Source of the DNA: Panorpa germanica
Lineage: Eukaryota > Arthropoda > Insecta > Mecoptera > Panorpidae
DNA length: 64,000 nt
Direction: 5' to 3'
Assembly: GCA_963678705.1 (NCBI GenBank)
Contig: OY783208.1
Location: forward strand, 24,640,207-24,704,206
Shown: piece after piece, positions 2,426 through 64,000 of the stretch
Numbering within the stretch: the stretch's first letter is position 1
How the letters are laid out: every line of letters begins with the position of its first letter
Program-made: the position numbers and the translations under genes
The notes under the pieces: generated by a model
Database searches by the model: none
The model's input: the letters and a program-made list of their open reading frames with translations, nothing else
Told to the model about the DNA's origin: nothing

Positions 2426-15460
<13,035 letters not shown>

Positions 15461-18791: not shown

Positions 18792-18859
18792 TTTCATAGT
18801 ATAGAACACTTTAATTTGAGTTGTGAACAATGAAAAGAAATGAAAAAAGTAATATTCAA

Positions 18860-19065: not shown

Positions 19066-19084
19066 ATATATTGGCAGAGTAATA

Positions 19085-19510
19085 ATTCTCCTTATATGTT
19101 AGGAGATATTAACAATTAAAAAAGTCAGGTTACCAACCTTACAGCTCATAAATCTCTGCTATATGTATTTATATATCAAAATATCAAATATTATTTACAG
19201 ATATTTCAAGGAACAATCAAATTTTAATATTATGTCTGCTGTAACAGGGTTAAATAAAATAAAAACTTATTATTCTTTGATTTGACTTGATTATTTGACT
19301 ACCAACAGCTACAAAACATTACCACAGCACTGACCTACTCAACAAATAACTGACCTAGTGCTAAAACTACAATTCAAACTTTTAATTGCTATATCTCCGT
19401 CAACATTTAGATATTTAATAAAATAGACACGCCAATACACATTTATTAACATCAATTTCAATCAAAAATTTAAAAATCGACCACTACAAAATGAGGACAC
19501 AAGCCCACTG
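19085..19510 (-). repeat. Family A MITE, inverted partial copy
   Basis: Reverse-orientation copy ending with CGACCACTACAAAATGAGGA and ACACAAGCCCACTG. Together with 18189-18791 it makes a large inverted pair around the family P spacer. One terminus is missing. Confidence 0.75.
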
Positions 19511-34494: not shown

Positions 34495-35898
34495 CTGAAA
34501 TAAATAAAAACATCTATAGTAATACAGAAATGATCCTGACAACATTTTAAATAATAATATCTCGATAACGACGTGGTCAATAATGTTCATTTTTCTTTAT
34601 GACGTCTGTGACTACGATTTTTGTAACACATTAAATTTTCATGAAGTTCCTGCATTACGTTTGGAATTTAAACCAACAAATGTGTATTCTCCATAAGACC
34701 ACGTGTTCAAATTACTCAATTTTGATTTCGTTTCCAATAAAAACGGCGTGGTCGTTTTTAAATTAATTAGGCTCATAAGAATTGTACTTAATTAAAGAAC
34801 AATTAAGGATGTATGAGCGAGGGCGTGGTGTAATAGTGAATTTTACATTTGGCAACACCGCTTTTTTTGGTTAGTTTTTTCTCGGTGACATTTGAATGTT
34901 TTGTAAAGATGGATATACCTCAAAAACGTAACAAGCAAGGATTATTTTGTAAAAAACGACCACTAGAAATAGTTAATAATTTACATAGTAAAATAATAAA
35001 ACAAATGATTATAAAGTCGTCATTAATTCAAAAACGTATCTACATAAATTTGAATCACTACTATTATAATTTTGAGGTTATGTTATTAAATTATTAAAGT
35101 GTTTATAAATATTTTAATTCTATATACCATATGTGCTATTTTCTTAATTTTTGTACTTAATTTCAGCTGTTACTATCACGTAATATTTACGTAATTTTGA
35201 CAGTTCTGAACGAGGTTATATTTAAATCTTTAATTACCGTTTTTCCCGCTGTCGTGTTGTGGCGCTTATTATAGCAGTGCGACGTTGCCAATAGCGAAAA
35301 ATAATTTATTAAATATCATAATTTGAATTTCATTTCTAATTTTCTTTTCAGGATGAACGGATACATAGTATTTTTAAAATATTGACCTGTCACGCCAATA
35401 TTCACCTTTCTAATGAATAGTTTTTTTTTATACGACACAATATAGAACATACTCATATTTATTGATTTATGATCACATGTACCCATTTCTCCATAAGAGC
35501 AATGTATTTTATGTCAATTTTCAACAATTAATTTCTTTAAAATATGAACGGTTACCTACCCTGAAATTTTAATGGTAAATTCTTTGAACAGACAAATATT
35601 TGAGCCTTTAAATCGAATTTTATTTTCTCGCTTCCTTTATTCATTGTTACCAGTATATTTACTCGTCTGATTGCAGGTCGTAAAACAGACATTTTCAGAG
35701 CCTAAGTAAACAACATTCTGGAAAAGAGCAGGACCTTTTTGTCGGTTTGCAAAAACGATTAAGACATTCCAGTGATAGCGCCAGGACAATCCGATACTTT
35801 TCTACCTGATAAAACCAAAACAAATTTATCAACCCTAAAATTGAAATAATTTGCATTCCTACAAATTCAAATCTTATGTTAAAAATGTTAATCAAACA

Positions 35899-36431
35899 AT
35901 GGGCTTGTGTCCTCATTTTTTAGTGGTCGATTTTTCAATTGTTGATTGAAATTGATGTTAATAAATGTGTATTGGCGTGTCTATTTTATTAAATATCTAA
36001 ATGTTGACGGAGATATAGCAATTAAAAATTTGAATTGTAGTTTTAGCGCTAGAAATGGTCGGCCATATTTGTATGACGTGAAATGCATTTTAATGTCAGT
36101 TATTTGTTACGTAGGTCAGTGCTGTGGCAATGTTTTGTAGCTGTTGGTAGTCAAATAATCAAGTCAAGTCAAAGAATAATAAGTTTTTATTTTATTTAAC
36201 CCTGCTGAGGCAGACATAATATTGAAATTTGATTGTTCCTTGAAATAGCTGTAAATAATATTTGATATTTTGATATATAAATACATATAGCAGAGATTTA
36301 TGAGCTGTAAGGTTGGCAAAATGACTTTTTTAATTGTTAATATCTCCTAACATATAAGGAGTTCTAGTAACCCACTTTATCAATATATAGTACACTTTTA
36401 TAGAAATTAAGACATAGGACACAAGCCCATT
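35899..36431 (+). mobile_element. Family A MITE inside copy 1
   Basis: Has the left end AATGGGCTTGTGTCCTC and the right end GGACACAAGCCCATTT, with an internal deletion after GTAAGGTTGGC. The counterpart at 45756-46285 has the same deletion, so this insertion predates the duplication. Confidence 0.8.
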
Positions 36432-36801
36432 TACAAATTTTGAAAAAAAGTTAGTCATTTAACGAATAAATTGAACAAAAAATTTATTTTGGGAAAAAAA
36501 ATATATTTTTTTAGTTAGTTTATATGAAAAATTATTTGTTGTTATTTGTAAAATTAATATGGAACGAGTTAAATATTCCAATTTAAAAATGAAATTAAAA
36601 TTTGACATTAAATTCAATTCACACACAAAAGGCAGTCGTCGCTTGTGACAGGGGTAAAGTTTAGTATATTGATAAAATGGGTTACTAGAACTTCTTATAT
36701 GTTAGGAAATATTAACAATTAAAAAAGTCATTTTGTCTCTTTAATTATTAAAGGGATTCAACGTTGTACACATTCCAAGAGGTGAATCATTTCTGCAATG
36801 T

Positions 36802-36841
36802 TGCTATCTCTTTTACACAACACAGCGTAAAAGAGATAGCA
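36802..36841. repeat. Perfect 15-bp-stem hairpin, copy 1
   Basis: TGCTATCTCTTTTAC, a 10-nt loop ACAACACAGC, then GTAAAAGAGATAGCA. The stem is perfect and is preserved base for base at 46656-46695. Confidence 0.75.
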
Positions 36842-38289
36842 TATTTATGACAGTACCTGATTTCTATACCTCACAAACCTTTTCTGCAGAGGGAGTATAC
36901 TTTAATTGTTTACACCTCATTTCCTTCCCCTTCCATCGCCCTTAAAGCGGCTCAATTCCTGTCAGACATTTTTAAGCTAAGTGATAGGACCTGATTTGAA
37001 GACAACTCATTTACAGTGGAACCAGTGAACAGGACGCATCTACCTGACTTAAGGTATGTCAAACTTTGTATACATAACCTCAAATATTGAATTTCATTTG
37101 TATTGTCATAGTGCCACGTGTTTTGAAATTATCTTCGTTATTTTAAAGCTCTTATACGCCTAAGCATTTTACTTAATTAGCTATTCAACTTATTAAAAAT
37201 GTTTTAGATATAAAAAAAATACCTTAATTGCATTTTATATTTAATTAATAAATATAAAAATACGTCCTATATTATAATGTTCCAAGTGAATGTTTATATG
37301 TTTACGCGATTCGTTTGGTAGCTCGAAAATTCCAACACTTTTAGTGGCCTCAGATTTTGGAAAAACTAAAAGAAAGTTTTTTAATTTTTGCTGTATTACT
37401 TTTAATTCATATAAAAATAGAAATTTGAAAATTTGCTTGTGTATTACGCGCTATTTATTGCATCACTCTTAAAAATTTTCGGATTATTTTTAAGACAAAG
37501 TTTCTAAAGCAAATTTGAGAAACCGGTATTAAAAAAAATTAATATATTGTGCCTTAATTTCGTTTACCATACCAGTGCATTAAACCCATTTAAGACACAT
37601 TTGTGCATTAATTTTGTATGAAATTTAATAATCGAATTTTTAAAATAACATATTTATTTCATTTATTGAAAATTATTTTACGTTAATAATACATACTGTA
37701 TAAATAATGTACTGTGGAATGTAATAATATACTGTGATTTATTTTAATAATAATACAATAAATAATTTTCTTCATAATCAACAAATTAAATGCTTCATTA
37801 AATAGGTCGACTTCTTCTATAAACTCTTTCAGTCGGGGTTCAATTGTAGTTTTACTTCTTTTAACTTTATTTTTACTTCCCGTTGTTGGATATATTTCAA
37901 GAAATATCCTAGAAAAACAGTAGCAAATATTATCATTAGTAGTAAAATTAATTTAATCTAAGTTAAGTTAATAGTTCAAACCCTTGAATCAATTCCAATG
38001 TTCTTTTCACTTCGGGAGGATAGCAATACCATCAATTAAAATTGGAAAAATAACTCCAATGTTTGGAATTTCAGTGTTCATAATATGTGCTTAACGTTCT
38101 GCATTAGATGGCATGGTCTGCACATATAATAATTCTAATGGTGGTTTATTTCCATTATCTTTTCGTATAGAATCTATTTGCTCCCAACATTCAACGGCCT
38201 TTAAATATTTCTTTATGGGATCAAGCGACTGCATTTATTGACAATATATGAGAGACATACATTAGTTCAATTGTTTTTACATAAAGCAT

Positions 38290-38590
38290 ACTATTATATC
38301 TTAATATATATAAATTACGTGTCACTGTGATGTCCGCTATGGACTCCTAAACTACTTAACCGATTTTAATGAAATTTGTACACCGTGTGCAGTTTGTTGG
38401 ATAGCTTACATCTCAATTTATTTATCTTATTGCTAATTATTTGTCTATTAATTATCTGTATATGACATCGGGCGACGATGATGGCGACATCTGTTGACTA
38501 GATTGAGTAAATATTCAATAGATGGCGCTATGTAATGTAATATGACAAAAACGTTAGTCACAGCAACGCGTGGCCGGGACAGCTAGTAGT
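38290..38590 (-). mobile_element. Retroelement-like tail (RTE/SINE type), copy 1
   Basis: Reverse-strand relative of 14751-15083. It ends with CAACGCGTGGCCGGGACAGC followed by TAG. About 30 bp present in the 48310-48620 counterpart (GACCCAACTTGAAAGATAGG region) is missing here. No ORF. Confidence 0.65.
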
Positions 38591-38660
38591 TCTATAGATT
38601 TAGTATCTGTATGAAGTTCTATGAACTAAAATTACAACGGCGACTCAACGTAAGAAGGGA

Positions 38661-38744
38661 ATGAAGGGGGAAGATGGTACACCTAAAAAAACCGTGTACA
38701 GCGCCCCCTCCCCGTCCTCCCACTTCCAAGGCGGCATCGAATAA
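38661..38744 (+). other. GC-rich island with a 27-codon ORF, copy 1
   Basis: In an AT-rich neighbourhood, about 100 bp here are rich in C and G (GCGCCCCCTCCCCGTCCTCC). An ORF MKGEDGTPKKTVYSAPSPSS plus seven residues ends at TAA. The frame is open about 12 codons further upstream. The same stretch at 48693-48776 appears identical. It could be an exon remnant, a promoter island of the downstream LRR gene, or a transposon piece. I do not recognise it. Confidence 0.3.
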
Positions 38745-39567
38745 TTATCCATAATACAATTACTTTATTACTTATACATGATTGAAATTATTTATGAATT
38801 TTAGTAATGTTAGGTTAATCTGTCTTCATTTTATGTATCACATGTGTTACTGTTCGATACAGGAGAGCTAGGAGGTCAGAAATTCGAGACCTGATGTATC
38901 TCGGTTGATGCACAAAATTAGACTCCCGTTAAAATCTAAATTGGCAACATTGTATATCGTTTTGAATTATTCCGAGCAAGCAAATAAAAGACGCTATATA
39001 GCCATGTCATGTGTCCCGTAGTCCCTCATGTAACCCATTGATTCTCGGAATGTTGTGAGGGTGTAATTATGCATCTGACTCCAGATATAGTAATAATTAG
39101 TTCCATCTGATCGACGCATGTATGTTTTTGGATTAGGTCGATCTCATTATGCAAGTTGTTAGGGATGACTGATTGTAAACTTAAATAATTAAGCTTCCTT
39201 ATTTTAATATATCTAATACTGTGAAATTTTAGGAATCACATTGAAACAAGTAATTGGAATAAATCCACGTAATAAAAACCCGCCGATTACACAACTGTTC
39301 ATAATTATAATTATGAATATTATCGAATATATAAATTCAAGTTTGAATTAAATCATTATTGACTTCAAATCATACATGTAAAACAGACGTCGCTATGCGA
39401 CGGGGTAAACGCTATTTACTTTTAATAACTTCAGAATAAAATTAAAAATAATACGTCTTAATTTTATTTAATACACCCAGGTAGTAATTTTACCATTAAA
39501 TCTGTATTAAATTTAATATATATTTTTTATTTGGTCTAGACCTCGAAAGTTTAGGGTATTTTGAGGA

Positions 39568-39791
39568 ATGTCTGTTTATAATAAAAATAATGAAAAACGG
39601 TATTTTAACTTTTTAGGGTTATTATCACACTTATTCTACAAACCAAAAAATCTTTTGTGAAATTTAAAAATATTGTTAAGTATGTTAAAAATGACGGTGA
39701 AATAGACCCTGTCCAAAAATTGTACCTGGACGGTGTTGCCGAATTTGGCTCTTCTATTTATCTGAGAAATAAGAACCAAGAAAATTATTAA
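39568..39791 (+). pseudogene. Short ORF with ATP synthase coupling factor 6-like core, frameshifted (copy 1)
   Basis: The ATG frame starts MSVYNKNNEKRYFNFLGLLS but stops about 30 codons in. A second frame resumes just beyond with KNIVKYVKNDGE and then DPVQKLYLDGVAEFG, ending NQENY. The core resembles the DPIQKLFLDKIREY motif of mitochondrial ATP synthase coupling factor 6. The break shows this copy cannot make the full product. The similarity spans only about 14 residues, so the assignment is tentative. No introns or presequence are evident. Confidence 0.35.
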
Positions 39792-40026
39792 TTAGTATGA
39801 GTACAGCTACAATTGGAACTAGAGATACCAAAAATAATTGTAAATTGACAAAATGGCGCGCTTTTCAAATTCTAATTCTAAAAACAGGGTTTTTTTTAAT
39901 AGTTATTTAATGAAAAAAATACGAAATTTGTGAAATAAATCAATATTGTGAATAACATATTAAAATTTCAGACGATTCGGTTTTTCTCTTTTTCTACAAC
40001 ACCACGCCGAAAAAAGTAGTTAAAAA

Positions 40027-40250
40027 AAGATATAGTCCAAATCACGATAGTTCGGCGGTGACTTATACTTAAAACAGGTTATAAGAGCGGTATAAATCTA
40101 TAATACGATAATGAATTTTATCTTATTCGTTTCTATATACATTAGAGAAAATTGAGTGAGTCTGTGCTTTTTAGTTATATCGGCAGTTTATACCCCACAA
40201 CTTGTTTTAAGTATGAGTCGCCGCCGAACTCTCGTAATTTGAACTATATA
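40027..40250. repeat. Inverted repeat upstream of LRR gene 1
   Basis: CAAATCACGATAGTTCGGCG and ACTTATACTTAAAACAGG pair with CTTGTTTTAAGTATGAGT and CGCCGAACTCTCGTAATTTG. The same structure occurs in copy 2 at about 50030-50250. It lies about 1 kb upstream of the start codon in copy 1 and about 250 bp upstream in copy 2. Confidence 0.7.
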
Positions 40251-40411
40251 TGCTAAAACGGCTGTAGAAACGAATCTATTGTAAAAACAAAAGTCCCCCT
40301 TAACATTTTGCAGACCACCATTTTGAAAAATCTTTTTTTAACCTCATTAAACATAATAGTAGTAATCCATACCGCTAGATGTCTCTAGTCGTATTAATTC
40401 TGGTTTCTATA

Positions 40412-41178
40412 TTACTATTTATTATATTAATTGTGTGCCTTTCGGCTTTACAATCTACATTATTATATTTCTTAATGCATTTCATATAAAGTCAAAGTTA
40501 AAACTAAACTTAAACTATTCTAGACTATTACTACTTCGAATAGTACTTTCTGTTTCTTCTGTTCTTGATCCTCTCTCTTCATGTCCCCTACTCCTCCTTT
40601 ATTCACACCCTTTCCTGCTTCTCCTTACTTATTGCCTGTATCTTCATCTATCACCTCTTGCCTTCCTTGTCTCCTCTCGACAAACCCTCTATTATCTTTT
40701 CACTATCCTTCCTGCCTTCTCTCTTCGTTTTCACTTCTCCACTTATGTCTATTACAGGCATAGACGCTCTATTTTTACTATTTTATTATTGTCTCTATCT
40801 CCGTCATCCACCTCTTGTCCTCATCTCCTTTCCGCAAATCCTCTATTTTTCTGGACTGAAGTTTAACTGTTTCCTCGCTACTTCTTTCTTTCTCCTGCTT
40901 CCTTCACTGCCTCTCTTTAATAGCTGGCCAATATTCATCTCGCTCCCTACTTTTTCCTTACACTCAAACTTAACGTGCTCCAGTGTTTCGTCCTCCGTTC
41001 CGCACACTCTACACTTTCTTTCCTCACTACTTTCACAGTATCTGTTTCCTTTTTCCTCATTTCCCAATCTAAACCTTGCTGTCCTTCTTATGCTTTTTAT
41101 ATCTTTTTCTATTAGGTACTGAGGTACATTACTTCCCCAAATCCTTTTATATCTTGTATTGTATCTGGTTTCTTCCGG
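40412..41178 (-). mobile_element. 5'-truncated LINE inserted only in copy 1
   Basis: Minus-strand frame from about 41175 to 40843: RYNTRYKRIWG, SIRRTARFRLG, then the zinc motif CRVCGTEDETLEHVKFEC and a stop. This is the C-terminal end of a non-LTR retrotransposon ORF2. The 3' region ends in an AATAATA-type tail at the left. GGTTTCTATAT occurs at both borders (near 40401 and 41179) and once in the empty site of copy 2, so it is a target duplication of about 11 bp. The CT-rich plus-strand ORFs here are shadows. Confidence 0.85.
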
Positions 41179-41264
41179 TTTCTATATATTGACTTTAAAG
41201 TAATTTTTGTTTCTAGGTGAATCTCTTCTGTTGAAATAGTTTTCCAACTTATTAATTCGTCGTC

Positions 41265-43397
41265 ATGTTAATCACAGAATTAGACACTTACTGCATGGAG
41301 CACTTGGTGTCCTTCTTGGACAAGCCAGATGTCTTAGAGTTCAGCAAAGTTGGCCTGGATCAGGAAGCCACAGATGCCTACTGGCGAAAAACAACTGTGA
41401 TACGATTTAGCGAATGTATGACGGTAGATGACAAGCTCCTGCAATATTTGCGGTTGTGTCCTTCCCTTAAAGAATTGGTCATACGTTGTTCCATGAGTGT
41501 CCCCATGACGCACTCACTCCTAAACACGATTGGTCTTCATTCTCGCGCTCTGGAAACACTGGACATCTCCGAGATAAACCTGACATCTTACAAAACAAGT
41601 TTTCTAAGCTCCTGCCCACAGTTGAAGTCTTTAAGTGTTCGTATTCCATTCTTTTACCTGAAAACACCTTCGCGTGGATTATTCCACCCAGAAACCCAGC
41701 TGGAACACCTATCCGTGGATGGATATGTAAAAAGATGGAGAGGACAAGCGAATAATGTGACTACGAGTCTGTTCTTTTTATCAGATGTTGCTGCAACGCA
41801 AAGATCTTTGAAATCTTTAACGATTGATACCATCGATGAAGACATCGTTGGTGAGATCTTTGCCAACAACCCACACCTTGAGGTCGTGACCGTGACAGGG
41901 AACGACAGGGTAGACATGAGATGTCTACTCCAATTACCGAAGACCCTGAAACATTTGCGTGTGCTCCATTGTGGTAGAATGGCCACAACCACATTAATAG
42001 AGTTTTTCCGAGGTTGGCATCTCGATTCCTTTACCATGGACGCTGTCTTGATAGATCTCTACCCAAATATAATGGCTGAACTGCCACCCTTAAGACGCCT
42101 AGAAATAAAGTTCTGTTTCTATCCTTTCTGGCCTTCCTTGGGCTCCTTAAGGAATCTAAGGCACTTACGAAGTCTCAGTTTGACAAATTTTACGAACACC
42201 CATAATGCCGGACTTACGCTGATATTCCGCAGCTGTGTCAACGTGGCCTCCCTTATTATCGATGGAAAACGCATGAGTTTTAGCCCAGATTTGTTTAAAA
42301 TAATTGCGGAAATGCCAAAGCTAAAGGACATTAGAATCGGGCATGACAGGAGAGATACGGATTACACGGCATTGATGCGTTGGCTCTCAACTAGCAAGAC
42401 TTTGGCGTCAGTAAATTTAAGATGGTTCAAAGGTTTGGAGACCAAAGATATCCTAATGCTGATCCAGGGTTCCAGCATTTTAGAGGTGAGTTTTAAAACT
42501 ATCATTTTAATTATTTCCTATAGATTAACAGTGTGTCCAAAATGTGTGCGAGAGAGAAAGGTATATGTTCTTATTTGTGCTCTATGCGCATGCGTCGAAA
42601 GTGACAGCTGTCTAGATATAATAAATATTAAATATATAAAGAAATTATATTTCTTTAGTTGGTACAAAGCTCGTCTGTCGGTAAAACAGTGACCGTTCAG
42701 TGAAAAGATATACTCATGAACGCCATAGATGTCGCTGTATTTATATTTATACATATCTACATTATTCTACATCAATATAATGTCATATTTAACAACTGTC
42801 ACGTATTATATCTAGACAGCTGTGACTTGACAACTGTCACTTTCGACGCATGCGCATAGAGAACAAATAAGAACAAATATACCTTTCTCTCTCTATAAGC
42901 CTACATATTACGTCATACAAATATGGCCGACCATTTCTAGAGCTAAAACTACAATTCCAGTTTTTAATTGCTATATCTCTGTCAACATTTAGATATTTAA
43001 TAAAATAGACACGCCAATACACATTTATTAACATCAATTGGAAAATCGACCACTAAGAAATGAGGATACAAGCCCCTTGCTCTAAATAACTGGTATTTTT
43101 TTTTGCAGAATTTGGAGCTAAGTGGAAACACACTAGAACCAGATTTAGTCCTGAAAATAATCGAAGTTCTGACGCAACAAAAAAACAGGACGAATATTTT
43201 AGACGTAACGTTCCATGAAGTTGAATTTCATAAAGAGGTTTGTACTAACAACTTTAATAACATTTTTAAAATACATAAACTAACATATTGCCCCTGGAGG
43301 TTATGTGACATCTTTAACATTGTTTTAATTTCTAATAATTTTGCAGGACATTCCAAAAGGAAGCTGTCATCCTCTACTGCGGGTGCAATTTAAATAG
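41265..43397 (+). CDS. F-box-like/LRR protein, paralogue 1
   Basis: Three exons, 41265-42485, 43109-43237 and 43347-43397, all phase 0, giving 466 aa. Residues about 1-30 (ITELDTYCMEHLVSFLDKPD) look like a weak F-box, the Skp1-binding motif of SCF ubiquitin ligases. The rest is a run of about a dozen LxxLxL leucine-rich repeats: LKELVI, LETLDIS, LKSLSV, LEHLSV, LKSLTID, LKHLRV, LRRLEIK, LRSLSL, LKDIRI, and LELSGNTL in exon 2. By family analogy it would be a substrate receptor; the target is unknown. The ATG at 41265 is followed at once by the F-box. A TTTGTTTCTAG acceptor at about 41217 suggests a spliced leader exon. Failure to splice intron 1 would add 68 codons from family B sequence before a stop. 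The paralogue is at 50490. The protein family is insect-typical but I cannot name an orthologue. Confidence 0.85.
42527..43074. repeat. Family B foldback plus inverted family A fragment in LRR1 intron 1
   Basis: 42527-42900 is family B, with arms GAGAGAAAGGTATATGTTC and ACCTTTCTCTCTCTATAAG and an internal GACATCTATGGCG-complement block. 42905-43074 is the left part of family A in reverse, ending AATGAGGATACAAGCCCC. Both are present at the same places in copy 2. Confidence 0.8.
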
Positions 43398-43434
43398 ACT
43401 TCAATAGTTTTTAACTCTTATATATAATTGGCAA

Positions 43435-43440
43435 AATAAA
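43435..43440 (+). terminator. Poly(A) signal of LRR gene 1
   Basis: AATAAA lies 37 nt downstream of the stop codon. The same spacing occurs in copy 2, at 52669-52674. Confidence 0.6.
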
Positions 43441-43561
43441 TTAATTAGAAATACATCTAGGGTTTTATTTTTAATTTAATCATATTTTCGATAATGTTTT
43501 TTGACGACACAGTTAATATATAATTACTTCTATAATTACTACATGATAAAATAACATTTAA

Positions 43562-44387
43562 AGAATACTTTGTGAAATTTTCATAAATAAATATCAAGAA
43601 ATGAGCCATTGACAGCGAATCTCCGATGACGTCACAAAAAAAGTAACTCATAACTCATCACTGGATTATTTGAAATCAAAAAACCAAAATGATTTCATTA
43701 GTTGATAAGTTCCTGCAGGACACCCTGTCGAGTTTTTTAATTGAGTTATGTCCGCTACACTTTAAATTGATAAACTGTTTAATTAAATTTCCTTAATCTT
43801 TGCTATTTTGGCTTTTTTGCAATTTTTTCTCAATTCATAGGCTTTTTCTTAGAAATCTAGTTATTCTTTTCAATTTCTTTGATGCAGTTATGTTCGCTAT
43901 GCTCTAAAATAGAAAATAACATCATTAGATTTTAAATACCTACGCAATTCTGGCTTTTATGCAAGCTTTTTTTATTTTCATAGATATGTTTAAAAAAAGA
44001 TTAAAATCCTATATTATAATGTTCCAAGTGAAAGTTTATATGTTCACGCGATTCGTATAATGGCGTAATATTTCTTCCGTCTTCAATTAATTGTTAGGTT
44101 TAGTCTGCAAATATTGTCAGAAAATAATAGCAAAATACATGACTTTCTAGTTTTGTGTTATTTAGAAATGTTGGACTTTGTAAGGTTCTAAAAAAACCAA
44201 GAAAACGTAAATTAGGTTCTATCAAATCAAATCAGGAGCTGTGAATTTTTATCCTGTCTACAGAAAAACAGAAAATTACATTTTTCCCCTGGAACATAAA
44301 AATAAAAACAACAATTTCATTTTCAATACAAGTTTCTTTATTTTTCGTTTTGTAAAAATGATTGTAGCAAAGGTTAGTTCAAATATC
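43562..44387. other. Spacer between the two segmental copies
   Basis: Starts within an inverted family C copy (43480-43730, last landmark GATAAGTTCCTGCAGGACAC). It then carries a family J-like fragment with GATGCAGTTATGTTCGCTAT (near 43882) and the CTATATTATAATGTTCCAAG end (near 44010). No gene. It meets copy 2 at 44388. Confidence 0.6.
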
Positions 44388-45755
44388 AACATTTTAAATA
44401 ATAATATCTTGATAACGACGTGGTCAATAATGTTCATTTTTCTTTATGAGGTCTGTGACTACGATTTTTATAACATATCAAATTTTCATGAAGTTCCTGC
44501 ATTACGTTTGGAATTTAAACCAACAAATGTGTATTCTCCATAAGAGCCCGTGTTCTAATTACTCAATTTTGATTTCGTTTCCAATAAAAACGGCGTGGTC
44601 ATTTTTAAAATAATTAGGCTCATAAGAATTGTATTTAATCCAAGAATAATTAAGGATGTATGAGCGAGGGCGTGGTGTAATAGTGAATTTTACATTTGAC
44701 AACACCGCTTTTTTTGGTTAGTTTTTTCCCGGTGACATTTGAATGTTTTGTAAAGATGGATATACCTCAAAAACGTAACAAGCAAGGATTATTTTGTAAA
44801 AAACGACCACTAGAAATAGATAATAATTAACATAGTAAAATAAAAAAACAAATGATTATAAAGTCGTCATTAATTCAAAACGTATCTACATAAATTTGAA
44901 TCACTACTATTATAATTTTTAGGTTATGTTATTAAATTATTAAATTATTAAAGTGTTTATAAATATTTTAATTCTATATACCATATGTGCTATTTTCTTA
45001 ATTTTTGTACTTAATTTTAGCTGTTACTATCACGTAATATTTACGTAATTTTGACAGTTCTGAACGAGGTTATATTTAAATCTTTAATTACCGTTTTTCC
45101 CGCTGTCGTGTTGTGGCGCTTATTATAGCAGTGCGACGTTGCCAATGGCGAAAAATAATTTATTAAATATCATAATTTGAATTTAATTTCTAATTTTCTT
45201 TTCAGGATGAACGGATACATAGTATTTTTAAAATATTGACCTGTCACGCCAATATTCACCTTTCTAATGAATAGTTTTTTTTTATACGACACAATATAGA
45301 ACATACTCATATTTATTGATTTATGATCACATGTACCCATTTCTCCATAAGAGCAATGTATTTTATGTCAATTTTCAACAATTCATTTCTTTAAAATATA
45401 AACGGTTACCTACCCTGAAATTTTAATGGTAAATTCTTTGAACAGACAAATATTTGAGCCTTTAAATCGAATTTTATTTTCTCGCTTATTTTCTTAATTG
45501 GTACCAGTATATTTACTCGTTTGATTGCAGGTCGTAAAACAGACATTTTCAGAGCCTAAGTAAACAACATTCTGGAAAAGAGCAGGACCTTTTTGTCGGT
45601 TTGCAAAAACGATTAAGACATTCCAGGGATAGCGCCAGGACAACCCGACACTTTTCTACCTGATAAAACCAAAACAAATTTATCAACCCTAAAACTGAAA
45701 TAATTTGCATTCCTACAAATTCAAATCTTATGTTAAAAATGTTAATCAAACAATA

Positions 45756-46285
45756 GGCTTGTGTCCTCATTTATTAGTGGTCGATTTTTCAATTGTTGAT
45801 TGAAATTGATGTTAATAAATGTGTATTGGTGTGTCTATTTTATTAAATATCTAAATATTGACGGAGATATAGCAATTAAAAATTTAAATTGTAGTTTTAG
45901 CGCTAGAAATGGTCGGCCATATTTGTATGACGTGAAATGCATTTTAACGTCAGTTATTTGTTACGTAGGTCAGTGCTGTGGTAATGTTTTGTAGCTGTTG
46001 GTAGTCAAATAATCAAGTCAAGTCAAAGAATAATAAGTTTTTATTTTATTTAACCCTGTTAAGGCAGACATAATATTGAAATTTGATTGTTCCTTGAAAT
46101 AGCTGTAAATAATATTTGATATTTTGATATATAAATACATATAGCAGAGATTTATGAGCTGTAAGGTTGGCAAAATGACTTTTTTAATTGTTAATATCTC
46201 CTAACATATAAGGAGTTCTATTAACCCACTTTATCAATATATAGTACACTTTTATAGAAATTAAGACATAGGACACTAGCCCATT
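45756..46285 (+). mobile_element. Family A MITE inside copy 2
   Basis: Counterpart of 35899-36431, with the same internal deletion. It begins CAATAGGCTTGTGTCCTC and ends GGACACTAGCCCATTT. Confidence 0.8.
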
Positions 46286-46655
46286 TACAAATTTTGAAAA
46301 AAAGTTAGTCATTTAACGAATAAATTGAACAAAAAATTTATTTTGGGGAAAAAAATATATTTTTTTAGTTAGTTTATATGAAAAATTATTTGTTGTTATT
46401 TGTAAAATTAATATGGAACGAGTTAAATATTCCAATTTAAAAATGAAATTAAAATTTGACATTAAATTCAATTCACACACAAAAGGCAGTCGTCGCTTGT
46501 GACAGGGGTAAAGTTTAGTATATTGATAAAATGGGTTACTAGAACTTCTTATATGTTAGGAAATATTAACAATTAAAAAAGTCTTTGTGTTTTTTTAATT
46601 GTTAAAGGGATTCAACGTTGTACACATTCCAAGAGGTGAATCAGTTCTGAAATGT

Positions 46656-46695
46656 TGCTATCTCTTTTACACAACACAGCGTAAAAGAGATAGCA
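46656..46695. repeat. Perfect 15-bp-stem hairpin, copy 2
   Basis: Identical in stem and loop to 36802-36841. Flanking sequence differs slightly, for example AATCAGTTCTGAAA against AATCATTTCTGCAA. A 78-codon ORF spanning it is judged fortuitous. Confidence 0.75.
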
Positions 46696-47444
46696 TATTT
46701 ATGACAGTACCTGATTTCTATACCTCACAAACCTTTTCTGCAGAGGGAGTATACTTTAAAATGTTTACACCTCATTTCCTTCCCCTTCCATCACCCCTAA
46801 AGCGGCTCAATTCCTGTCAGACATTTTTAAGCTAAGTGATAGGACCTGATTTGAAGACAACTCATTTACAGTGGAACCAGTAAATGAACAGGACACATCT
46901 ACCTGACTTAAGGTATGTCAAACTTTGTATACATAACCTCAAATATTGAATTTCATTTGTATTGTCATAGTGCCACGTGTTTTGAAATTATCTTCGTTAT
47001 TTTAAAGCTCTTATACGCCTAAGCATTTTACTTAATTAGTTATTCAACTTATTAAAAATGTTTTAGATATAAAAGAATACCTTAATTACATTTTATATTT
47101 AATTAATAAATATAAAAATACGTCCTATATTATAATGTTCCAAGTGAATGTTTATATGTTTACGCGATTCGTTTGTTAGCTCGAAAATTCCAACACTTTT
47201 GGTGGCCTCAGATTTTGGAAAAACTAAAAGAAAGTTTTTTAATTTTTGCTGTATTACTTTTAATTCGTAAAAGATAGAAATTTGAAAATTTGCTTGTGTA
47301 TTACGCGCTATTTATTGCATCACTCTTAAAAATTTTCGGATTATTTTTAAGACAAAGTTTCTAAAGCAAATTTGAGAAACCGGTATTAAAAAAAATTAAT
47401 ATACCGTGCCTTAATTTCGTTTACCATACCAGTGCATTAAACCC

Positions 47445-47670
47445 ATTTAAGACACATTTGTGCATTAATTTTGTATGAAATTTAATAACCATATTTTTAA
47501 AATTTAAGACACGTGTATTAATTTTGTATGAAATTTAATAATCGAATTTTTAAAATTTAAGACACATGTGTATTAATTTTGTATGAAATTTATTAATCGA
47601 ATTTTTGAAATTTAAGACACATTTGTGCATTAATTTTGTATGAAATTTAATAACCATTTTTTTAAAATAA
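47445..47670 (+). repeat. Minisatellite of about 55 bp, four copies
   Basis: Repeats of a unit containing TTTAAGACACATTTGTGCAT and TTTTGTATGAAATTTAATAA. GACAC occurs at 47451, 47508, 47561 and 47616. Copy 1 has a single unit at about 37580-37650, so the array expanded in copy 2 or contracted in copy 1. Confidence 0.85.
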
Positions 47671-48309
47671 CATATTTATTTCATTTATTGAAAATTATTT
47701 TACATTAATAATACATATACTGTATAAATAATGTACTGTGGAGTGTAATAATATACTGTGACTTATTTTAATAATAATACAATAAATAATTTTCTTCATA
47801 ATCAACAAATTAAATGCTTCATTAAATAGGTCGACTTCTTCTATAAACTCTTTCAGTCGGGGTTCAATTGTAGTGTTACTTCTTTTAACTTTATTTTTAC
47901 TTCCCGTTGTTGGATATATTTCAAGAAATATCCTAGAAAAACAGTAGCAAATATTACCATTAGTAGTAAAATTAAGTTAATCTAAGTTAAGTTAATAGTT
48001 CAAACCCTTGAATCAATTCCAATGTTCTTTTCACTTCGGAATCAATTAAAATTGGAAAAATAACTCCAATGTTTGGAATTTCAGTGTTCATAATATGTGC
48101 TTAACGTTCTGCATTAGATGGCATGGTCTGCACATATAATAATTCTAATGGTGGTTCATTTCCATTATCTTTTCATATAGCATCTATTTACTTCCAACAT
48201 TCAACGGCCTTTAAATATTTCTTTATGGGATCAAGCGACTGCATTTATTGACAACATATGAGAGACATACATTAGTTCCATTGTTTTTACATAAAGCGTA
48301 CTATTATAT

Positions 48310-48620
48310 CTTAATATATATAAATTACGTGTCACTGTGTTGTCCGCTATGGACTCCTAAACTACTTAACCGATTTTAATGAAATTTGTACACCGTGTGC
48401 AGTTTGACCCAACTTGAAAGATAGGATAGCTTACATCTCAATTTATTTATCTTATTGCTAATTATTTGTCTATTAATTATCTGTATATGACATATGACAT
48501 CGGGCGACGATGATGGCGACATCTGTTGACTAGATTGAGTAAATATTCAATAGATGGCGCTATGTAATGTAATATGACAAAAACGTTAGTCACAGCAACG
48601 CGTGGCCGGGACAGCTAGTA
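48310..48620 (-). mobile_element. Retroelement-like tail (RTE/SINE type), copy 2
   Basis: Partner of 38290-38590 and more complete, retaining the block around GACCCAACTTGAAAGATAGG. It ends CAACGCGTGGCCGGGACAGC. Confidence 0.65.
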
Positions 48621-48692
48621 GTTCTATAGATTTAGTATCTGTATGAAGTTCTATGAACTAAAATTACAACGGCGACTCAACGTAAGAAGGGA

Positions 48693-48776
48693 ATGAAGGG
48701 GGAAGATGGTACACCTAAAAAAACCGTGTACAGCGCCCCCTCCCCGTCCTCCCACTTCCAAGGCGGCATCGAATAA
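48693..48776 (+). other. GC-rich island with a 27-codon ORF, copy 2
   Basis: Appears identical to 38661-38744, including the stop. It is about 1.7 kb upstream of LRR gene 2. Function unknown. Confidence 0.3.
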
Positions 48777-49599
48777 TTATCCATAATACAATTACTTTAT
48801 TACTTATACATGATTGAAATTATTTATGAATTTTAGTAATGTTAGGTTAATCTGTCTTCATTTTATGTATCACATGTGTTACTGTTCGATACAGGAGAGC
48901 TAGGAGGTCAGGAATTCGAGACCTGATGTATCTCGGTTGATGCACAAAATTAGACTCCCGTTAAAATCTAAATTGGCAACATTGTATATCGTTTTGAATT
49001 ATTCCGAGCAAGCAAATAAAAGACGCTATATAGCCATGTCATGTGTCCCGTAGTCCCTCATGAAACCCGTTGATTCTCGGAATGTTGTGAGGGTGTAATT
49101 ATGCATCTCACTCCAGATATAGTAATAATTAGTTCCATCTGATCGACGCATGTATGTTTTTGGATTAGGTCGATCTCATTATGCAAGTTGTTAGGGATGA
49201 CTGATTGTAAACTTAAATAATTAAGCTTCCTTATTTTAATATATCTAATACTGTGAAATTTTAGGAATCACATTGAAACAAGTAATTGGAATAAATCCAC
49301 GTAATGAAAAGCCGCCGATTACACAACTGTTCATAATTATAATTATGAATATTATCGAATATATAAATTCAAGTTTGAATTAAATCATTATTGACTTCAA
49401 ATCATACATGTAAAACAGACGTCGCTATGCGACGGGGTAAACGCTATTTACTTTTAATAACTTCAGAATAAAATTAAAAATAATACGTCTTAATTTTATT
49501 TAATACACCCAGGTAGTAATTTTACCATTAAATCTGTATTAAATTTAATATATATTTTTTATTTGGTCTAGACCTCGAAAGTTTAGGGTATTTTGAGGA

Positions 49600-49794
49600 A
49601 TGTCGGTTTATAATAAAAATAATGAAAAACGGTATTTTAACTTTTTAGGGTTATTATCACACTTATTCTACAAACCAACAATGTATGTTAAAAATGACGG
49701 TGAAGTAGACCCTGTCCAAAAATTGTACCTGGACGGTGTTGCCGAATTTGGCTCTTCTATTTATCTGAGAAATAAGAACCAAGAAAATTATTAA
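49600..49794 (+). pseudogene. Short ORF with ATP synthase coupling factor 6-like core (copy 2)
   Basis: 64-codon open frame. A deletion relative to copy 1 joins FYKPT directly to MYVKNDGE, followed by DPVQKLYLDGVAEFG and ending NQENY. The frame is open but the middle is shortened, so a functional coupling factor is unlikely. The similarity is limited to the short DPxQKL core. It is probably a decayed gene or retrocopy duplicated with the segment. Confidence 0.35.
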
Positions 49795-50489
49795 TTAGTA
49801 TGAGTACAGCTACAATTGGAACTAGAGATACCAAAAATAATTGTAAATTGACAAAATGGCGCGCTTTTCAAATTCTAATTCTAAAAACAGGGTTTTTTTT
49901 AATAGTTATTTAATGAAAAAAATACGAAATTTGTGAAATAAATCAATATTGTGAATAACATATTAAAATTTCAGACGATTCGGTTTTTCTCTTTTTCTAC
50001 AACACCACGCCGAAAAAAGTAGTTTTAAGATATAGTCCAAATCACGATAGTTCAGCGGCGACTTATACTTAAAACAGGTTATAAGAGCGGTATAAATCTA
50101 TAATACGATAATGAATTTTATCTTATTCGTTTCTATATACATTAGAGAAAATTAAGTGAGTCTGTGCTTTTTAGTTATATCGGCAGTTTATACCCCACAA
50201 CTTGTTTTAAGTATGAGTCGCCGCCGAACTCTCGTAATTTGAACTATATATGCTAAAACGGCTGTAGAAACGAATCTATTGTAAAAACAAAAGTCCCCCT
50301 TAACATTTTGCAGACCACCATTTTGAAAAATCTTTTTTTAACCTCATTAAACATAATAGTAGTAATCCATACCGCTAGATGTCTCTAGTCGTATTAATTC
50401 TGGTTTCTATATATTGACTTTAAAGTAATTTTTGTTTCTAGGTGAATCTCTCCTGTTGAAATAGTTTTCCAACTTATTAATTCGTCGCC

Positions 50490-52631
50490 ATGTTAATCAC
50501 AGAATTAGACACTTACTGCATGGAGCACTTGGTGTCCTTCTTGGACAAGCCAGATGTCTTAGAGTTTAGCAAAGTTGGCCTGGATCAGGAAGCCACAGAT
50601 GCCTATTGGCGAAAAACAACTGTGATACGATTTAGTGAATGTATGACGGTAGATGACAAGCTCCTGCAATATTTGCGGTTGTGTCCTTCCCTTAAAGAAT
50701 TGGTCATAAGTTGTTCCATGAGTGTCCCCATGACACACTCGCTCCTAAACACGATTGGTCTTCATTCTCGCGCTCTGGAAACACTGGACATCTCCGGGAT
50801 AAACCTGACATCTTACAAAACAAGTTTTCTAAGCTCCTGCCCACAGTTGAAGTCTTTAAGTGTTCGTATTCCATTCTTTTACCTGAAAAAACCTTCGCGT
50901 GGATTATTCCACCCAGAAACCCAGCTGGAACACCTATCCGTGGATGGATATATAAAAAGATGGAGAAGATGGATAAGACAAGCGAATAATGAGACTAGGA
51001 GTCTGTTCTTTTTATCAGATGTTGCTGCAACGCAAAGATCTTTGAAATCTTTAACGATTGAAACCATCGATGAAGACATCGTTGGTGAGATCTTTGCCAA
51101 CAACCCACACCTTGAGGTCGTGACCGTGACAGGGAACGAGCTGAGAGACATGAGATGTCTACTCCAATTACCGAAGACCTTAAAACATTTGCGTGTACGT
51201 TATTGTGGTGAAATAGCCACAACCACATTAATAGAGTTTTTCCGAGGTTGGCATCTCGATTCCTTCACCATGGACGCTGTCTTGATAGTTGCCTGCCCAA
51301 ATATAATGGCTGAACTGCCACCCTTAAGACACCTAGAAATAAAGCGCAGTGTGAATTCTTTCTGGCCTTCCTTGGGCTCCTTAAGGAATCTAAGTCACTT
51401 ACGAAGTCTCAGTTTGACAGAATTTGAGTACACCCATAATGCCAGACTTACGGAGATATTCCGCAGCTGTGTCAACGTGGCCTCCCTGGATATCGATGGA
51501 AGAGGCATGAGATTTAGCCCAGATTTGTTTAAAATAATTGCGGAAATGCCAAAGCTAAAGGACATTAGAATCGGGCATGACAGGAGAGATACGGATTACA
51601 TGGCATTGATGCGTTGGCTCTCAACAAGCAAGACTTTGACGTCAGTAAATTTAAGATGGTTCCAAGGTTTGGAGACCAAAGATATCCTAATGCTGATCCA
51701 GGGTTCCAGCATTTTAGAGGTGAGTTTTAAAACTATCATTTTAATTATTTCCTATAGATTAACAGTGTGTCCAAAATGTGTGCGAGAGAGAAAGGTATAT
51801 GTTCTTATTTGTGCTCTATGCGCATGCGTCGAAAGTGACAGCTGTCTAGATATAATAAATATTAAATATATAAAGAAATTATATTTCCTTAGTTGGTACA
51901 AAGCTCGTCTGTCGGTAAAACAGTGACCGTTCAGTGAAAAGATATACTCATGAACGCCATAGATGTCGCTGTATTTATATTTATACATATCTACATTATT
52001 CTACATCAATATAATGTCATATTTAACATATGTCACGTATTATATCTAGACAGCTGTGACTTGACCACTGTCACTTTCGACGCATGCGCATAGAGAACAA
52101 ATAGAAACATATAGCTTTCTGTCGCTATAAGCCTACATGTTACGTCATACAAATATGGCCGACCATTTCTAGAGCTAAAACTACAATTCCAGTTTTTAAT
52201 TGCTATATCTCTGTCAACATTTAGATATTTAATAAAATAGACACGCCAATACACATTTATTAACATCAATTGAAAAATCGACCACTAAGAAATGAGGATA
52301 CAAGCCCCTTGCTCTAAATAACTGGTATTTTTTTTTTTGCAGAATTTGGAGCTAAGTGGAAACACACTAGAACCAGATTTAGTCCTGAAAATAATCGAAG
52401 TTCTGACGCAACAAAAAAACAGGACGAATATTTTAGATGTAACGTTCCATGAAGTTGAATTTCATAAAGAGGTTTGTACTAACAACTTTAATAACATTTT
52501 TAAAATACATAAACTAACATATTGCCCCTGGAGGTTATGTGACATCTTTAACATTGTTTTAATTTCTAATTATTTTGCAGGACATTCCAAAAGGAAGCTG
52601 TCATTCTCTACTGCGGGTGCAATTTAAATAG
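50490..52631 (+). CDS. F-box-like/LRR protein, paralogue 2
   Basis: Exons 50490-51719, 52343-52471 and 52581-52631, all phase 0, give 469 aa; the three extra residues come from a 9-bp insertion near codon 157 (RRWI). The architecture matches paralogue 1: an N-terminal F-box-like segment followed by LRRs. In exon 1 I count about 37 amino-acid-changing and 10 silent codon differences from paralogue 1. About 33 of the changing ones lie after residue 140, mostly just after LxxLxL strands: VRYCGEIA for VLHCGRMA, IVACPN for IDLYPN, KRSVNSF for KFCFYPF, and TEFEYTHNARLTE for TNFTNTHNAGLTL. The first 140 codons and exons 2-3 are almost unchanged. No stop or frameshift is seen. An acceptor before the ATG (about 50441) again suggests a leader exon. 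Intron retention would add the same family B-derived tail. Confidence 0.85.
51762..52312. repeat. Family B foldback plus inverted family A fragment in LRR2 intron 1
   Basis: Counterpart of 42527-43074, with the same junctions. The family B right arm has decayed further here (ATAGCTTTCTGTCGCTATAAG). Confidence 0.8.
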
Positions 52632-52668
52632 ACTTCAATAGTTTTTAACTCTTATATATAATTGGCAA

Positions 52669-52674
52669 AATAAA
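52669..52674 (+). terminator. Poly(A) signal of LRR gene 2
   Basis: AATAAA lies 37 nt after the stop codon, the same spacing as in paralogue 1. Confidence 0.6.
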
Positions 52675-52796
52675 TTAATTAGAAATACATCTAGGGTTTT
52701 ATTTTTAATTTAATCACATTTTCGATAATGTTTTTTGGCGTCACAGTTAATATATAATTACTTCTATAATTACTACATGATAAAATAACATTTAAA

Positions 52797-52940
52797 ATGC
52801 ATTTCACGTCATACAAATATGGCCGACCATTTCTAGCGCTAAAACTACAATTCAAACTTTTAATTGTTATATCTCCGTCAACATTTAGATATTTAATAAA
52901 ATAGACACGCCAATACACATTTATTAACATCAATTTCAAT
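52797..52940 (-). repeat. Family A MITE fragment at the end of copy 2
   Basis: Inverted fragment starting TGCATTTCACGTCATACAAA and ending in ATTAACATCAATTTC. It truncates the family C sequence, so it marks either a later insertion or the duplication junction. Confidence 0.7.
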
Positions 52941-54070: not shown

Positions 54071-55030
54071 TGCTGGATCTGAAAGTGTGTCCAAAATGTG
54101 TGCTCATTTTTTAGTGGTCGATTTTTCAATTGTTGATTGAAATTGATGTTAATAAATGTGTATTGGCGTGTTTATTTTATTAAATATCTAAATGTTGACG
54201 GAGGTATAGCAATTAAAAGTTTGAATTGTAGTTTTAGCGCTAGAAATGGTCGGCCATGTTTATATGACGTGAAATACATTTTAACGTCAGTTATTTATTG
54301 AGTAGGTCAGTGCTGTGGTAATGTTTTGTAGCTGTTGGTAGTCAAATAATCAAGTCAAGTCAAAGAATAATAAGTTTTTATGTCATTTAACCCTGTTACG
54401 GCAGACATAATATTGAAATTTTATTGTTCCTTGAAATAGCTGTAAATAATATTTGATATTTTGATATATAAATACATAAATACATATAGCAGAGATTTAT
54501 GTAAGGTTGGCAGCGGTTGTGATGTCACATGCATTTGGAATGTGTACAACGTTGAATATCTTTAATAATTAAAGAGACAAGATGACTTTTTTAATTGTTA
54601 ATATCTCTTAACATATAAGGAGTTCTAGTAACCCACTTTATCTATATGTGGGACACTTTTATAGAAATTAAGACATAGGACACAAACCTATTGTCAAGTC
54701 AGAGCTGTCTAGATATAATACGTGACAGTTGTTAAATATGACATTATATTGATGTAGAATAATGTAGATAAGTATTAATATAAATACAGCGACATCTATG
54801 GCGTTCATGAGTATATATTTTCACTGAACGATCACTGTTTTACCGACAGACGAACTTTGTACCAACTAAAGAAATATAATTTCTTTACATATTTAATATT
54901 TGTTATATCTTAATAGAATATTAATATTTATTATATCTAGACAGCTGTCACTTTCGACGCATGCGCATAGAGAACAAATACGAACATATACCTTTCTCTC
55001 CCGCACACATTTTGAACACACTTTTAATCT
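54071..55030. mobile_element. Family B MITE split by a nested family A MITE
   Basis: GCTGGATCTGAAAGTGTGTC (family B left end) runs to about 54103. Family A in plus orientation follows from GCTCATTTTTTAGTGGTCG to ACACAAACCTATTG (about 54104-54692). Family B resumes with GTCAAGTCAGAGCTGTC and runs to its right arm near 55020. About 85 bp of the family B left arm are missing at the junction. Confidence 0.75.
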
Positions 55031-61480: not shown

Positions 61481-62504
61481 TTCTGACTACAAATAATTTT
61501 AATTATATTTTTAAAAATTACTATTTATTATTATCACTATTTATTAATTTAAATATTTATTTTGTTATATTAAAACTATGATTATATAAAAGTAAAAGTT
61601 TGTCTTGTTATTTATTTTGATGTTGTGTTCGCCAGACCCGATGTAACCCGAATTAACCCGTTAGATTTGTCACATAACCTTCAGGGGCTTAGAATTTATT
61701 ATTATAGAAGAAGTTTCAATACAATGCATTGATTTGCATTTTTAACATACGAACCCTAATTGACCTATGTTGAAACGGAAACGGAAGTTTTGTGATATAA
61801 CAATGGTCATTTTCTTACGATTCTTTGGGAATATGACAAATATTGTCGTGTAAAGAACATTACATCAAGCGGTATTGTACACGTGTTAACTTCGATTTAT
61901 GAATAATTTATGCCCCTGAAAGTTATGTGATCCTTTAAACACTTCTCCCAGTTAACAACAACACAGGGTTATTAACCTTTTACCATTGAAAGTTATACAC
62001 GTGTTTCCCCTTCTCCTCTACCTGTTGTAGTATAGGATTTCGCTTGTTGACATGACGTGCGGTTAAAGTTATTCCGCATGAACGGGCAGAGGTGTGAGAA
62101 AGAAATATTCGCATGGTGTTAAGTTACAACGTGTTATCTTATACTAGCTCTTCGCCCCATTGCCTGGCAACGGGTGTGTATTACACGTTTGTTATAGAAA
62201 CAGAAACTTCTAGAGCGATGAAAATTCTTTGATAATCTTTATTTCTTATTTGTCTAATTTTTAATAGGGTAATATCCGCTACACGTTAAATTAAAATTTA
62301 AAATATGTACAATTTTCTGGCTTTTTGTAATCTTTTCTATATTTATAGGCTTTTTTCAAAAATAAAAGTTTATTTGTTTTTCATGGTTTGATGCAACTGC
62401 TTTATTACACTTTGACCATCAATGCTTTTTAGGTTTCTATGCGACCTTTTTTTAATTCATGGACATTTTATTCTACAGAAAATTTAGGATCTTTGAAAAC
62501 TTTT
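61481..62504. other. Spacer before the satellite
   Basis: Holds a family Q copy at 61795-61875 (CAATGGTCATTTTCTTACG, ACAAATATTGTCGTGTAAAG) and a retroelement-like head TACTAGCTCTTCGCCC near 62143. The last 300 bp contain degenerate satellite-like words (GATGCAACTGC near 62390). No gene. Confidence 0.55.
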
Positions 62505-63834: not shown

Positions 63835-64000
63835 TTAGAACCCCCTATAAAATCTAAAATAATTAAGATATTAAAGAAATTTTAACGCAGTTCGTCTTCT
63901 TAAATATAAATGAACATAACTGCATCAAAAAATATTAAGAAATCAATAATTTTTCTTTTAAAAGAAAAGTCCAAGAATTTTTAGAACCCCTTATAAAATC
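63835..64000 (-). repeat. 147-bp satellite array, inverted part
   Basis: After AATATTTTT at 63834 the sequence continues AGAACCCCCTATAAAATCTA, the reverse complement of the monomer. It carries ACGCAGTTCGTCTTCTTAAA and ACATAACTGCATCAAAAAAT. It runs to the window edge, so its extent is unknown. Confidence 0.9.

What the first reader, a model, noticed from the sequence alone, without database searches (positions are those of the whole stretch)
41265..52631. Paralogous F-box-like/LRR genes differ mainly by amino-acid-changing substitutions on the LRR face
Hand alignment of exon 1 gives about 37 changed codons with replacement against about 10 silent, plus a 9-bp indel. About 33 replacements versus 5 silent fall after residue 140, often two to five neighbouring codons with several bases changed each. 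They cluster just after LxxLxL strands, which in LRR proteins is the ligand-facing side. The first 140 codons, exons 2-3 and the flanking noncoding DNA are much more alike. Diversifying selection, or conversion from a third paralogue, would explain this. It suggests a fast-evolving recognition protein such as an SCF substrate receptor in an arms race.
Basis: partly seen in the sequence, partly recalled or inferred. Interest (0 to 1): 0.8.

Follow-up and report, generated by a model that had tools for sequence, protein, structure and literature searches.

The report
Fast-evolving F-box/LRR-like gene family
Two neighbouring genes belong to a large family of leucine-rich-repeat proteins whose probable binding surface is changing by natural selection and by exchange of pieces between copies, perhaps because the proteins must keep recognising changing targets.

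Summary
Exon 1 of the two open genes differs at 37 replacement and 10 silent codons plus a 9-bp indel. They lie in a ~9-kb tandem duplication whose noncoding DNA differs by 1.7%. In codons 141-346 replacement divergence is 9.0%, five times noncoding (P=4e-14). Against silent sites the pair alone gives dN/dS 1.7 (P=0.13) or 2.5 by likelihood (2dlnL 5.0). The genome holds about 90 related loci. Seven close copies support omega>1 at many sites (2dlnL 55-57; at most 16.7 in 100 null simulations with recombination). Of 38 A/B replacements, 24 fall in the six positions after LxxLxL (P=1e-8). A second clade shows the same excess in one stretch. FBXL-type LRRs are well supported; an F-box in the window copies is not established. 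Positive selection on F-box substrate domains is already known, so this is a new member of a known kind.

The parts
34540..43562 (+). duplicated unit, copy A (about 9 kb)
   Evidence: self-BLAST pieces 96-99% identical to 44387-52796; noncoding divergence 116/6652
44387..52796 (+). duplicated unit, copy B
40412..41172 (-). 3' end of a LINE-like element upstream of gene A; also in copies C, D, E, F; absent from B, G, H
   Evidence: gap in alignment; 112-aa ORF with weak zf-RVT match, E 0.0084, below the family's cut-off; copies compared
41265..42485 (+). gene A exon 1: F-box-like N terminus (about codons 1-45, unproven) and LRRs 1-13
   Evidence: LRR_4 27.8 bits, cut-off 27
43109..43237 (+). 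gene A exon 2
   Evidence: GT/AG splice sites and frame
43347..43397 (+). gene A exon 3 with stop; protein 466 aa
   Evidence: end counted from the protein length
50490..51719 (+). gene B exon 1, with a 9-bp insertion relative to A
   Evidence: LRR_4 28.5 bits
52343..52471 (+). gene B exon 2
52581..52631 (+). gene B exon 3 with stop; protein 469 aa
   Evidence: end counted from the protein length
41685..42293 (+). hypervariable LRR core of gene A (alignment codons 141-346; residues 141-343 of A): 31 replacement, 4 silent codons against B
50910..51527 (+). hypervariable LRR core of gene B (codons 141-346)

Best explanation
The two genes are young members of a large F-box/LRR-derived (FBXL-like) family in an insect-like genome. 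Shown here: the N-terminal 67 residues and the LRR scaffold are constrained, while residues just after the LRR beta-strands, mostly in repeats 4-11, change faster than noncoding DNA; and dispersed copies exchange blocks, so that copies carry different combinations of surface blocks. Inferred: the N terminus binds Skp1 and so docks on a Cullin-1 ubiquitin ligase, the LRR surface grips a target protein, and copies diversify because targets (foreign proteins, symbiont or virus proteins, or rival host factors) escape recognition. Gene conversion would keep the scaffold uniform and move surface blocks between copies.
For: LRR core divergence 5x noncoding; with the neutral rate fixed from noncoding DNA omega is 5.8, 2dlnL 72.9. 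Seven copies A-G: 53 replacement-variable against 6 silent-only columns in 141-346, 16 against 11 in 1-140 (Fisher P=0.0024); post-strand positions of 141-346, 27 against 0. Mixture model with omega>1: 2dlnL 55-57; block 141-346 on its own tree 41.0, block 1-140 only 1.6; 100 null simulations of the whole exon with block-wise recombination gave at most 16.7. Register: 24 of 90 post-strand codons replaced between A and B against 14 of 309 other LRR codons; 0 of 45 at the three scaffold positions. Exchange: 638 of 1711 informative site pairs incompatible, PHI permutation P<1/2000; region trees reject each other by AU in 11 of 12 comparisons; insertion markers disagree with LRR blocks. Second clade, 11 genes: 66 replacement against 5 silent-only columns in alignment columns 104-208 (P=0.0005). 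FBXL identity: family profile hits FBXL17 (2e-18) and FBXL2 (2e-16) first, then other LRR proteins, COI1, TIR1 and SKP2 among them.
Against: The A/B dN/dS test without a noncoding yardstick is weak (P=0.13). Over all repeats the post-strand positions give dN/dS 1.42 with 15 of 21 pairs above 1, weaker than in 141-346. Codon models assume one tree, which is false here; the simulations used three blocks and cover finer exchange only partly. Silent divergence of exon 1 also exceeds noncoding divergence (P=0.017). No Pfam F-box model matches A or B, only 2 of 22 members match one, and the N-terminal family profile reaches F-box proteins of the PDB at E 0.22-1.7, mixed with unrelated proteins at similar E-values. 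There are no expression, binding or target data.
Confidence: 0.65

Rival explanations
1. Conversion from older paralogues without positive selection: the LRR core of A or B was overwritten by a diverged copy, which raised all divergence locally.
For: Exchange between copies is real; exon-1 silent divergence is above noncoding.
Against: Imported neutral or constrained sequence should bring silent changes at least in proportion (inference); post-strand positions of 141-346 show 27 replacement and 0 silent-only variable columns, and 0 of 39 scaffold positions vary in A-G.
Confidence: 0.12
2. Relaxed constraint or early pseudogenisation of redundant copies.
For: Broken copies exist in the same family (stops inside several matches).
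Against: Relaxation should not exceed the neutral rate, but LRR-core replacement divergence is five times noncoding; exon 1 is open in all nine copies A-I that I aligned; the N terminus stays constrained.
Confidence: 0.04
3. The proteins bind targets with the LRR surface but are no longer ubiquitin-ligase receptors: the F-box has decayed and they act as binders, decoys or secreted proteins.
For: No Pfam F-box match in A or B; 2 of 22 family members matched an F-box model; among SSGP-71 effectors of the Hessian fly one is reported without an F-box (passage in PMC4617103).
Against: Codons 1-67 are constrained (mean dN/dS 0.31 over 21 pairs); the N terminus aligns with the F-box of L043 (PF00646 2.5e-7); no signal peptide is apparent by eye and an in-frame stop ends 9 nt before the ATG.
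Confidence: 0.25
4. Mutational hotspot or clustered multi-nucleotide mutation, without selection.
For: 11 of 31 replaced codons in 141-346 have two changes and the changes cluster.
Against: A mutational cause should not spare silent sites and scaffold positions nor follow the LRR register; intron 1 beside it differs at 11 of 621 sites.
Confidence: 0.05

Closest known systems
Nematode and plant F-box families with positively selected substrate domains (Thomas 2006: not held, known from recall and from citations; Caenorhabditis survey PMC8665587: passages read)
   Same: Constrained N-terminal F-box, C-terminal substrate region with dN/dS peaks between paralogues (73 of 95 C. elegans and 25 of 37 C. 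briggsae pairs in the survey); degradation of foreign proteins was conjectured
   Different: In the passages read, LRR is named only among domains found in few members; whole-gene dN/dS was below 1 in all pairs but one. Here the changes follow the LRR register and block exchange between copies is shown
F-box/LRR expansions in the aphid parasitoids Aphidius ervi (232 genes) and Lysiphlebus fabarum (68) (PMC7257214, passages read)
   Same: Insect F-box/LRR family expanded in one lineage; an arms race was proposed
   Different: The passages read give gene numbers, no selection test; whether that family is related to the present one could not be tested here
SSGP-71 effectors of the Hessian fly (PMC4617103, passages read)
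   Same: N-terminal F-box in most, typically 13 degenerate LRRs of about 20-30 residues; a large family (size recalled)
   Different: SSGP-71 proteins are described as effectors likely acting inside host plant cells; the present proteins show no apparent signal peptide
FBXL proteins (FBXL17, FBXL2, SKP2, TIR1, COI1)
   Same: The 22-member profile matches FBXL17 best among solved structures (2.3e-18)
   Different: Those are mostly conserved single genes (recalled); the N terminus of the present copies does not pass as an F-box by sequence

Membership tests
FBXL (F-box/LRR) proteins | C-terminal array of LRRs of about 26 residues | tested here: met
   15 repeats, assigned by eye, spaced 23-31 alignment columns with one of 39; LRR_4 above cut-off in A and B; FBXL17 and FBXL2 are the best PDB matches of the family profile
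FBXL (F-box/LRR) proteins | N-terminal F-box | tested here: inconclusive
   No match in A or B or in the first 52 codons of A. Of 22 members scanned 2 match: L043 passes PF00646 (30.8 vs 20.5 bits), L041 falls short (PF12937 19.7 vs 24.3, PF00646 16.9 vs 20.5). N-terminal profile: 5 of 18 PDB sequences at E up to 10 are F-box proteins, best E 0.22
FBXL (F-box/LRR) proteins | binds Skp1 and brings a substrate to a Cullin-1 ligase | not testable with these tools
   needs biochemistry
F-box families under diversifying selection | dN/dS>1 in the substrate domain, purifying selection in the N-terminal domain | tested here: met
   21 pairs of A-G: mean dN/dS 2.18 at post-strand positions of 141-346, 0.79 in the rest of the LRRs, 0.31 before the LRRs. 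The N-terminal domain itself is not established as an F-box
SSGP-71-like secreted effectors | signal peptide and salivary expression | tested here: inconclusive
   N terminus with in-frame stop ending 9 nt before the ATG; no signal peptide by eye, no predictor and no expression data

The most novel reading that the evidence does not exclude
An insect-like genome keeps a repertoire of tens of intracellular, ubiquitin-linked LRR receptors whose surface blocks are assorted between loci by gene conversion and then selected. That would be an arthropod counterpart, inside the cell, of the receptor repertoires of plants (NLR clusters), with protein destruction as its output.
Probability: 0.25. Interest if true: 0.75.

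Novelty: new member of a known kind. Interest (0 to 1): 0.55.

Why it matters
Insect immunity is usually described through secreted and membrane receptors (recalled). A family of putative cytosolic ubiquitin-ligase receptors evolving like plant resistance genes would point to intracellular recognition of pathogens, symbionts or selfish elements in insects. The variable positions named here give a direct map for binding tests.

Tried and rejected
Conversion alone, relaxed constraint and mutation hotspot were tested against silent sites, noncoding DNA and LRR register and disfavoured. One viral-contig scan gave no relative. F-box tests on the window N terminus gave nothing significant. The telomere patterns TTAGG and TCAGG, meant to place the insect order, found 0 matches each; the tool says that DNA search skips simple repeats, so nothing is concluded, and species and order stay unknown. 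'Insect-like' rests on the look of the neighbouring Rho-kinase gene and of the noncoding DNA, not on a test.

Limits of the statistics. The LRR register was assigned by eye and six sets of positions were tried (6-11, 6-13, 0-5, 4, {1,2,4}, {0,3,5}); 6-11 is the sharpest, 6-13 also holds (26/120 vs 12/279, P=3e-7), and positions 4 and {1,2,4} show no effect. In one search the single-omega fit did not move from its start, so its omega of 1.00 is no result; the mixture comparison there used a fixed kappa and a grid of tree scales. Its sub-blocks gave 10.1, 13.4 and 9.0, but the simulations calibrate the whole exon only. AU tests used 5000 replicates, below the program's advice, and copies C (upstream) and H (downstream) were partial. 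Rows dropped: the 7-copy tests leave out H and I (80% and 77%) and J and K (J has stops, K matches from about residue 56 on). With nine copies A-I the register effect is weaker but holds (46/78 vs 83/265, P=2e-5), and 6 of 39 scaffold positions vary. Second clade by subsets: 5 genes 20/0 (P=0.006), 3 genes 15/1 (P=0.10). Locus counts: 102 of 372 first-look candidates were scored, so they are lower bounds; some identical loci (L018 and L019, for example) may be assembly duplicates.

Literature: searches listed 7, 4, 3, 1 and 2 papers; apart from PMC7257214 I read none of these, so they may hold relevant lines. Searches were listings from which two papers were read in passages (PMC4617103, PMC8665587).
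Full report
What is there. Genes A (41265-42485, 43109-43237, 43347-43397) and B (50490-51719, 52343-52471, 52581-52631) encode 466 and 469 residues, both open, with matching splice sites. They lie in two copies of a ~9-kb unit, 34540-43562 and 44387-52796. Of the two, only copy A carries a ~760-bp LINE-like 3' end just upstream of the gene.

Check of the counts. Exon 1 has 37 replacement and 10 silent codons and a 9-bp indel; after codon 140, 34 and 5. Noncoding divergence is 116/6652 (1.74%) or 119/6744 with the 5' leader. Replacement divergence is 0.009 in codons 1-140, 0.090 in 141-346 and 0.014 beyond; silent divergence is 0.055, 0.053 and 0.026. Against noncoding DNA the core is 5x faster (P=4e-14). 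Against its own silent sites the excess is 1.70 (Fisher P=0.13) by counting and 2.49 by likelihood (2dlnL 5.03); with the neutral rate fixed from noncoding DNA omega is 5.77 (2dlnL 72.9); for the whole coding sequence the free estimate is 1.35 (2dlnL 0.94). So the pair alone supports positive selection mainly through the noncoding yardstick. Exon-1 silent sites are themselves faster than noncoding DNA (11/271, P=0.017), partly a GC effect.

Where the changes fall. Fifteen LRRs were written in register by eye. The six positions after LxxLxL hold 24 of 38 replacements in 90 of 399 LRR codons (P=1.4e-8); the strand positions hold 3 of 38, and the three scaffold positions 0 of 45 codons. The variable residues are therefore at the C-terminal ends of strands and in the following loops rather than on the strand face proper. 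In known FBXL receptors this region takes part in binding (recalled).

The genome. The window is C5:24640207-24704206 of a 464-Mb assembly. Exon 1 of A has 141 matches, which cluster into 90 loci, 62 of them on C5; 67 have an open frame of at least 340 codons and no stop in a match. Only 102 of 372 first candidates were scored, so these are lower bounds; assembly duplicates may inflate them. Seven copies, A itself included, are about 90% or more identical to A: A and B at 24.68-24.69 Mb, C and G at 24.03-24.05 Mb, E and F at 22.2 Mb, D on another contig; H is 80% and I 77%. Exon 1 is open in all nine.

Selection across copies. In A-G, codons 141-346 have 53 replacement-variable and 6 silent-only columns, codons 1-140 have 16 and 11 (Fisher P=0.0024); post-strand positions in 141-346 have 27 and 0 (binomial P=0.001), over all repeats 33 and 3 (P=0.025). 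Mean dN/dS over 21 pairs is 2.18 at post-strand positions of 141-346, 1.42 at those of all repeats, 0.79 in the rest of the LRRs and 0.31 before them. A site-mixture codon model prefers omega>1 with 2dlnL 55.1 (7 copies) and 55.7 (9 copies), 56.5 in a second, coarser implementation, 41.0 for block 141-346 alone and 1.6 for block 1-140. One hundred simulations without positive selection but with three blocks on different trees gave a mean of 3.5 and a maximum of 16.7.

Exchange between copies. Variable blocks are shared in conflicting patterns: the RWI insertion is in B and G only among A-I; alignment columns 311-314 read EFEY in B, E, F, EFTN in C, D, G and NFTN in A; the LINE end is in A, C, D, E, F and not in B, G, H. 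Thus E and F share an insertion with A, C, D but LRR blocks with B. PHI rejects one history (P<1/2000; 638 of 1711 pairs incompatible). AU tests reject the tree of another region in 11 of 12 comparisons; the exception is the upstream alignment with the downstream tree (P=0.052), and the upstream alignment is the least decisive by the KH and SH tests too.

Repeat in a second clade. Eleven related genes at C5 22.75-22.93 Mb show the same excess in one stretch: 66 replacement and 5 silent-only columns in alignment columns 104-208 (P=0.0005), and no significant excess in the other three (29/6, 38/8, 23/6). One close pair (L022, L023) has 14 replacement and 0 silent changes there.

Identity. A 22-member profile finds FBXL17 (2.3e-18) and FBXL2 (2.4e-16), and then other LRR proteins including TLR9, LGR5, COI1, TIR1 and SKP2 (171 matches, best 60 shown). 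The F-box is clear only in the distant member L043 (PF00646, 2.5e-7, 30.8 bits against a cut-off of 20.5) and suggestive in L041. The genome-wide PF12937 search found 57 matches; the loci of L041 and L043 were just below the cut-off (23.1 and 22 against 24.3 bits) and the exons of A and B were not listed. The N-terminal profile gives F-box proteins only at E 0.22 and above, mixed with unrelated proteins. I therefore call A and B F-box-derived at most.

Mechanism. Shown: constrained N terminus and scaffold, fast-changing surface positions, exchange of blocks. Inferred: Skp1 docking, substrate capture, and an arms race as the driver. The known parallels are dN/dS peaks in the C-terminal region of nematode F-box proteins (PMC8665587, passages), and F-box/LRR expansions in aphid parasitoids with a proposed arms race (PMC7257214, passages). 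In the listings of my searches I saw no title or abstract on selection or conversion in insect F-box/LRR genes; that is a statement about those listings only.

Noticed in passing
window 4644-11535 (+): Rho-associated kinase (ROCK)-like gene: kinase domain 5.7e-52 in 4644-6224 and Rho-binding domain 6.9e-17 in 10654-11535.
   Followed up: partly
window 62454-63836: Tandem array with a period near 147 bp, longer copy matches mostly 86-91% alike.
   Followed up: no
window 18188-19510, 35896-36431, 45750-46285, 52792-52940, 54097-54694: A dispersed short repeat family of MITE-like look recurs through the window; pieces of it lie in intron 1 of both genes (42904-43039, 52136-52271) and at the 3' border of duplicated unit B.
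   Followed up: no
G000 contig C5: 62 of 90 family loci lie on one 24.8-Mb contig, with inverted pairs (F/E at 22.22/22.25 Mb, G/C at 24.03/24.05 Mb) and the direct pair A/B.
   Followed up: partly
L047, L048, L049: Three genes at C5 22.77 Mb carry an internal duplication of a stretch of about 26 residues near residue 75, so repeat number may change too.
   Followed up: no
L016 and C5 8-16 Mb: Several fragmentary family copies, some with internal stops, a sign of birth and death in the family.
   Followed up: no
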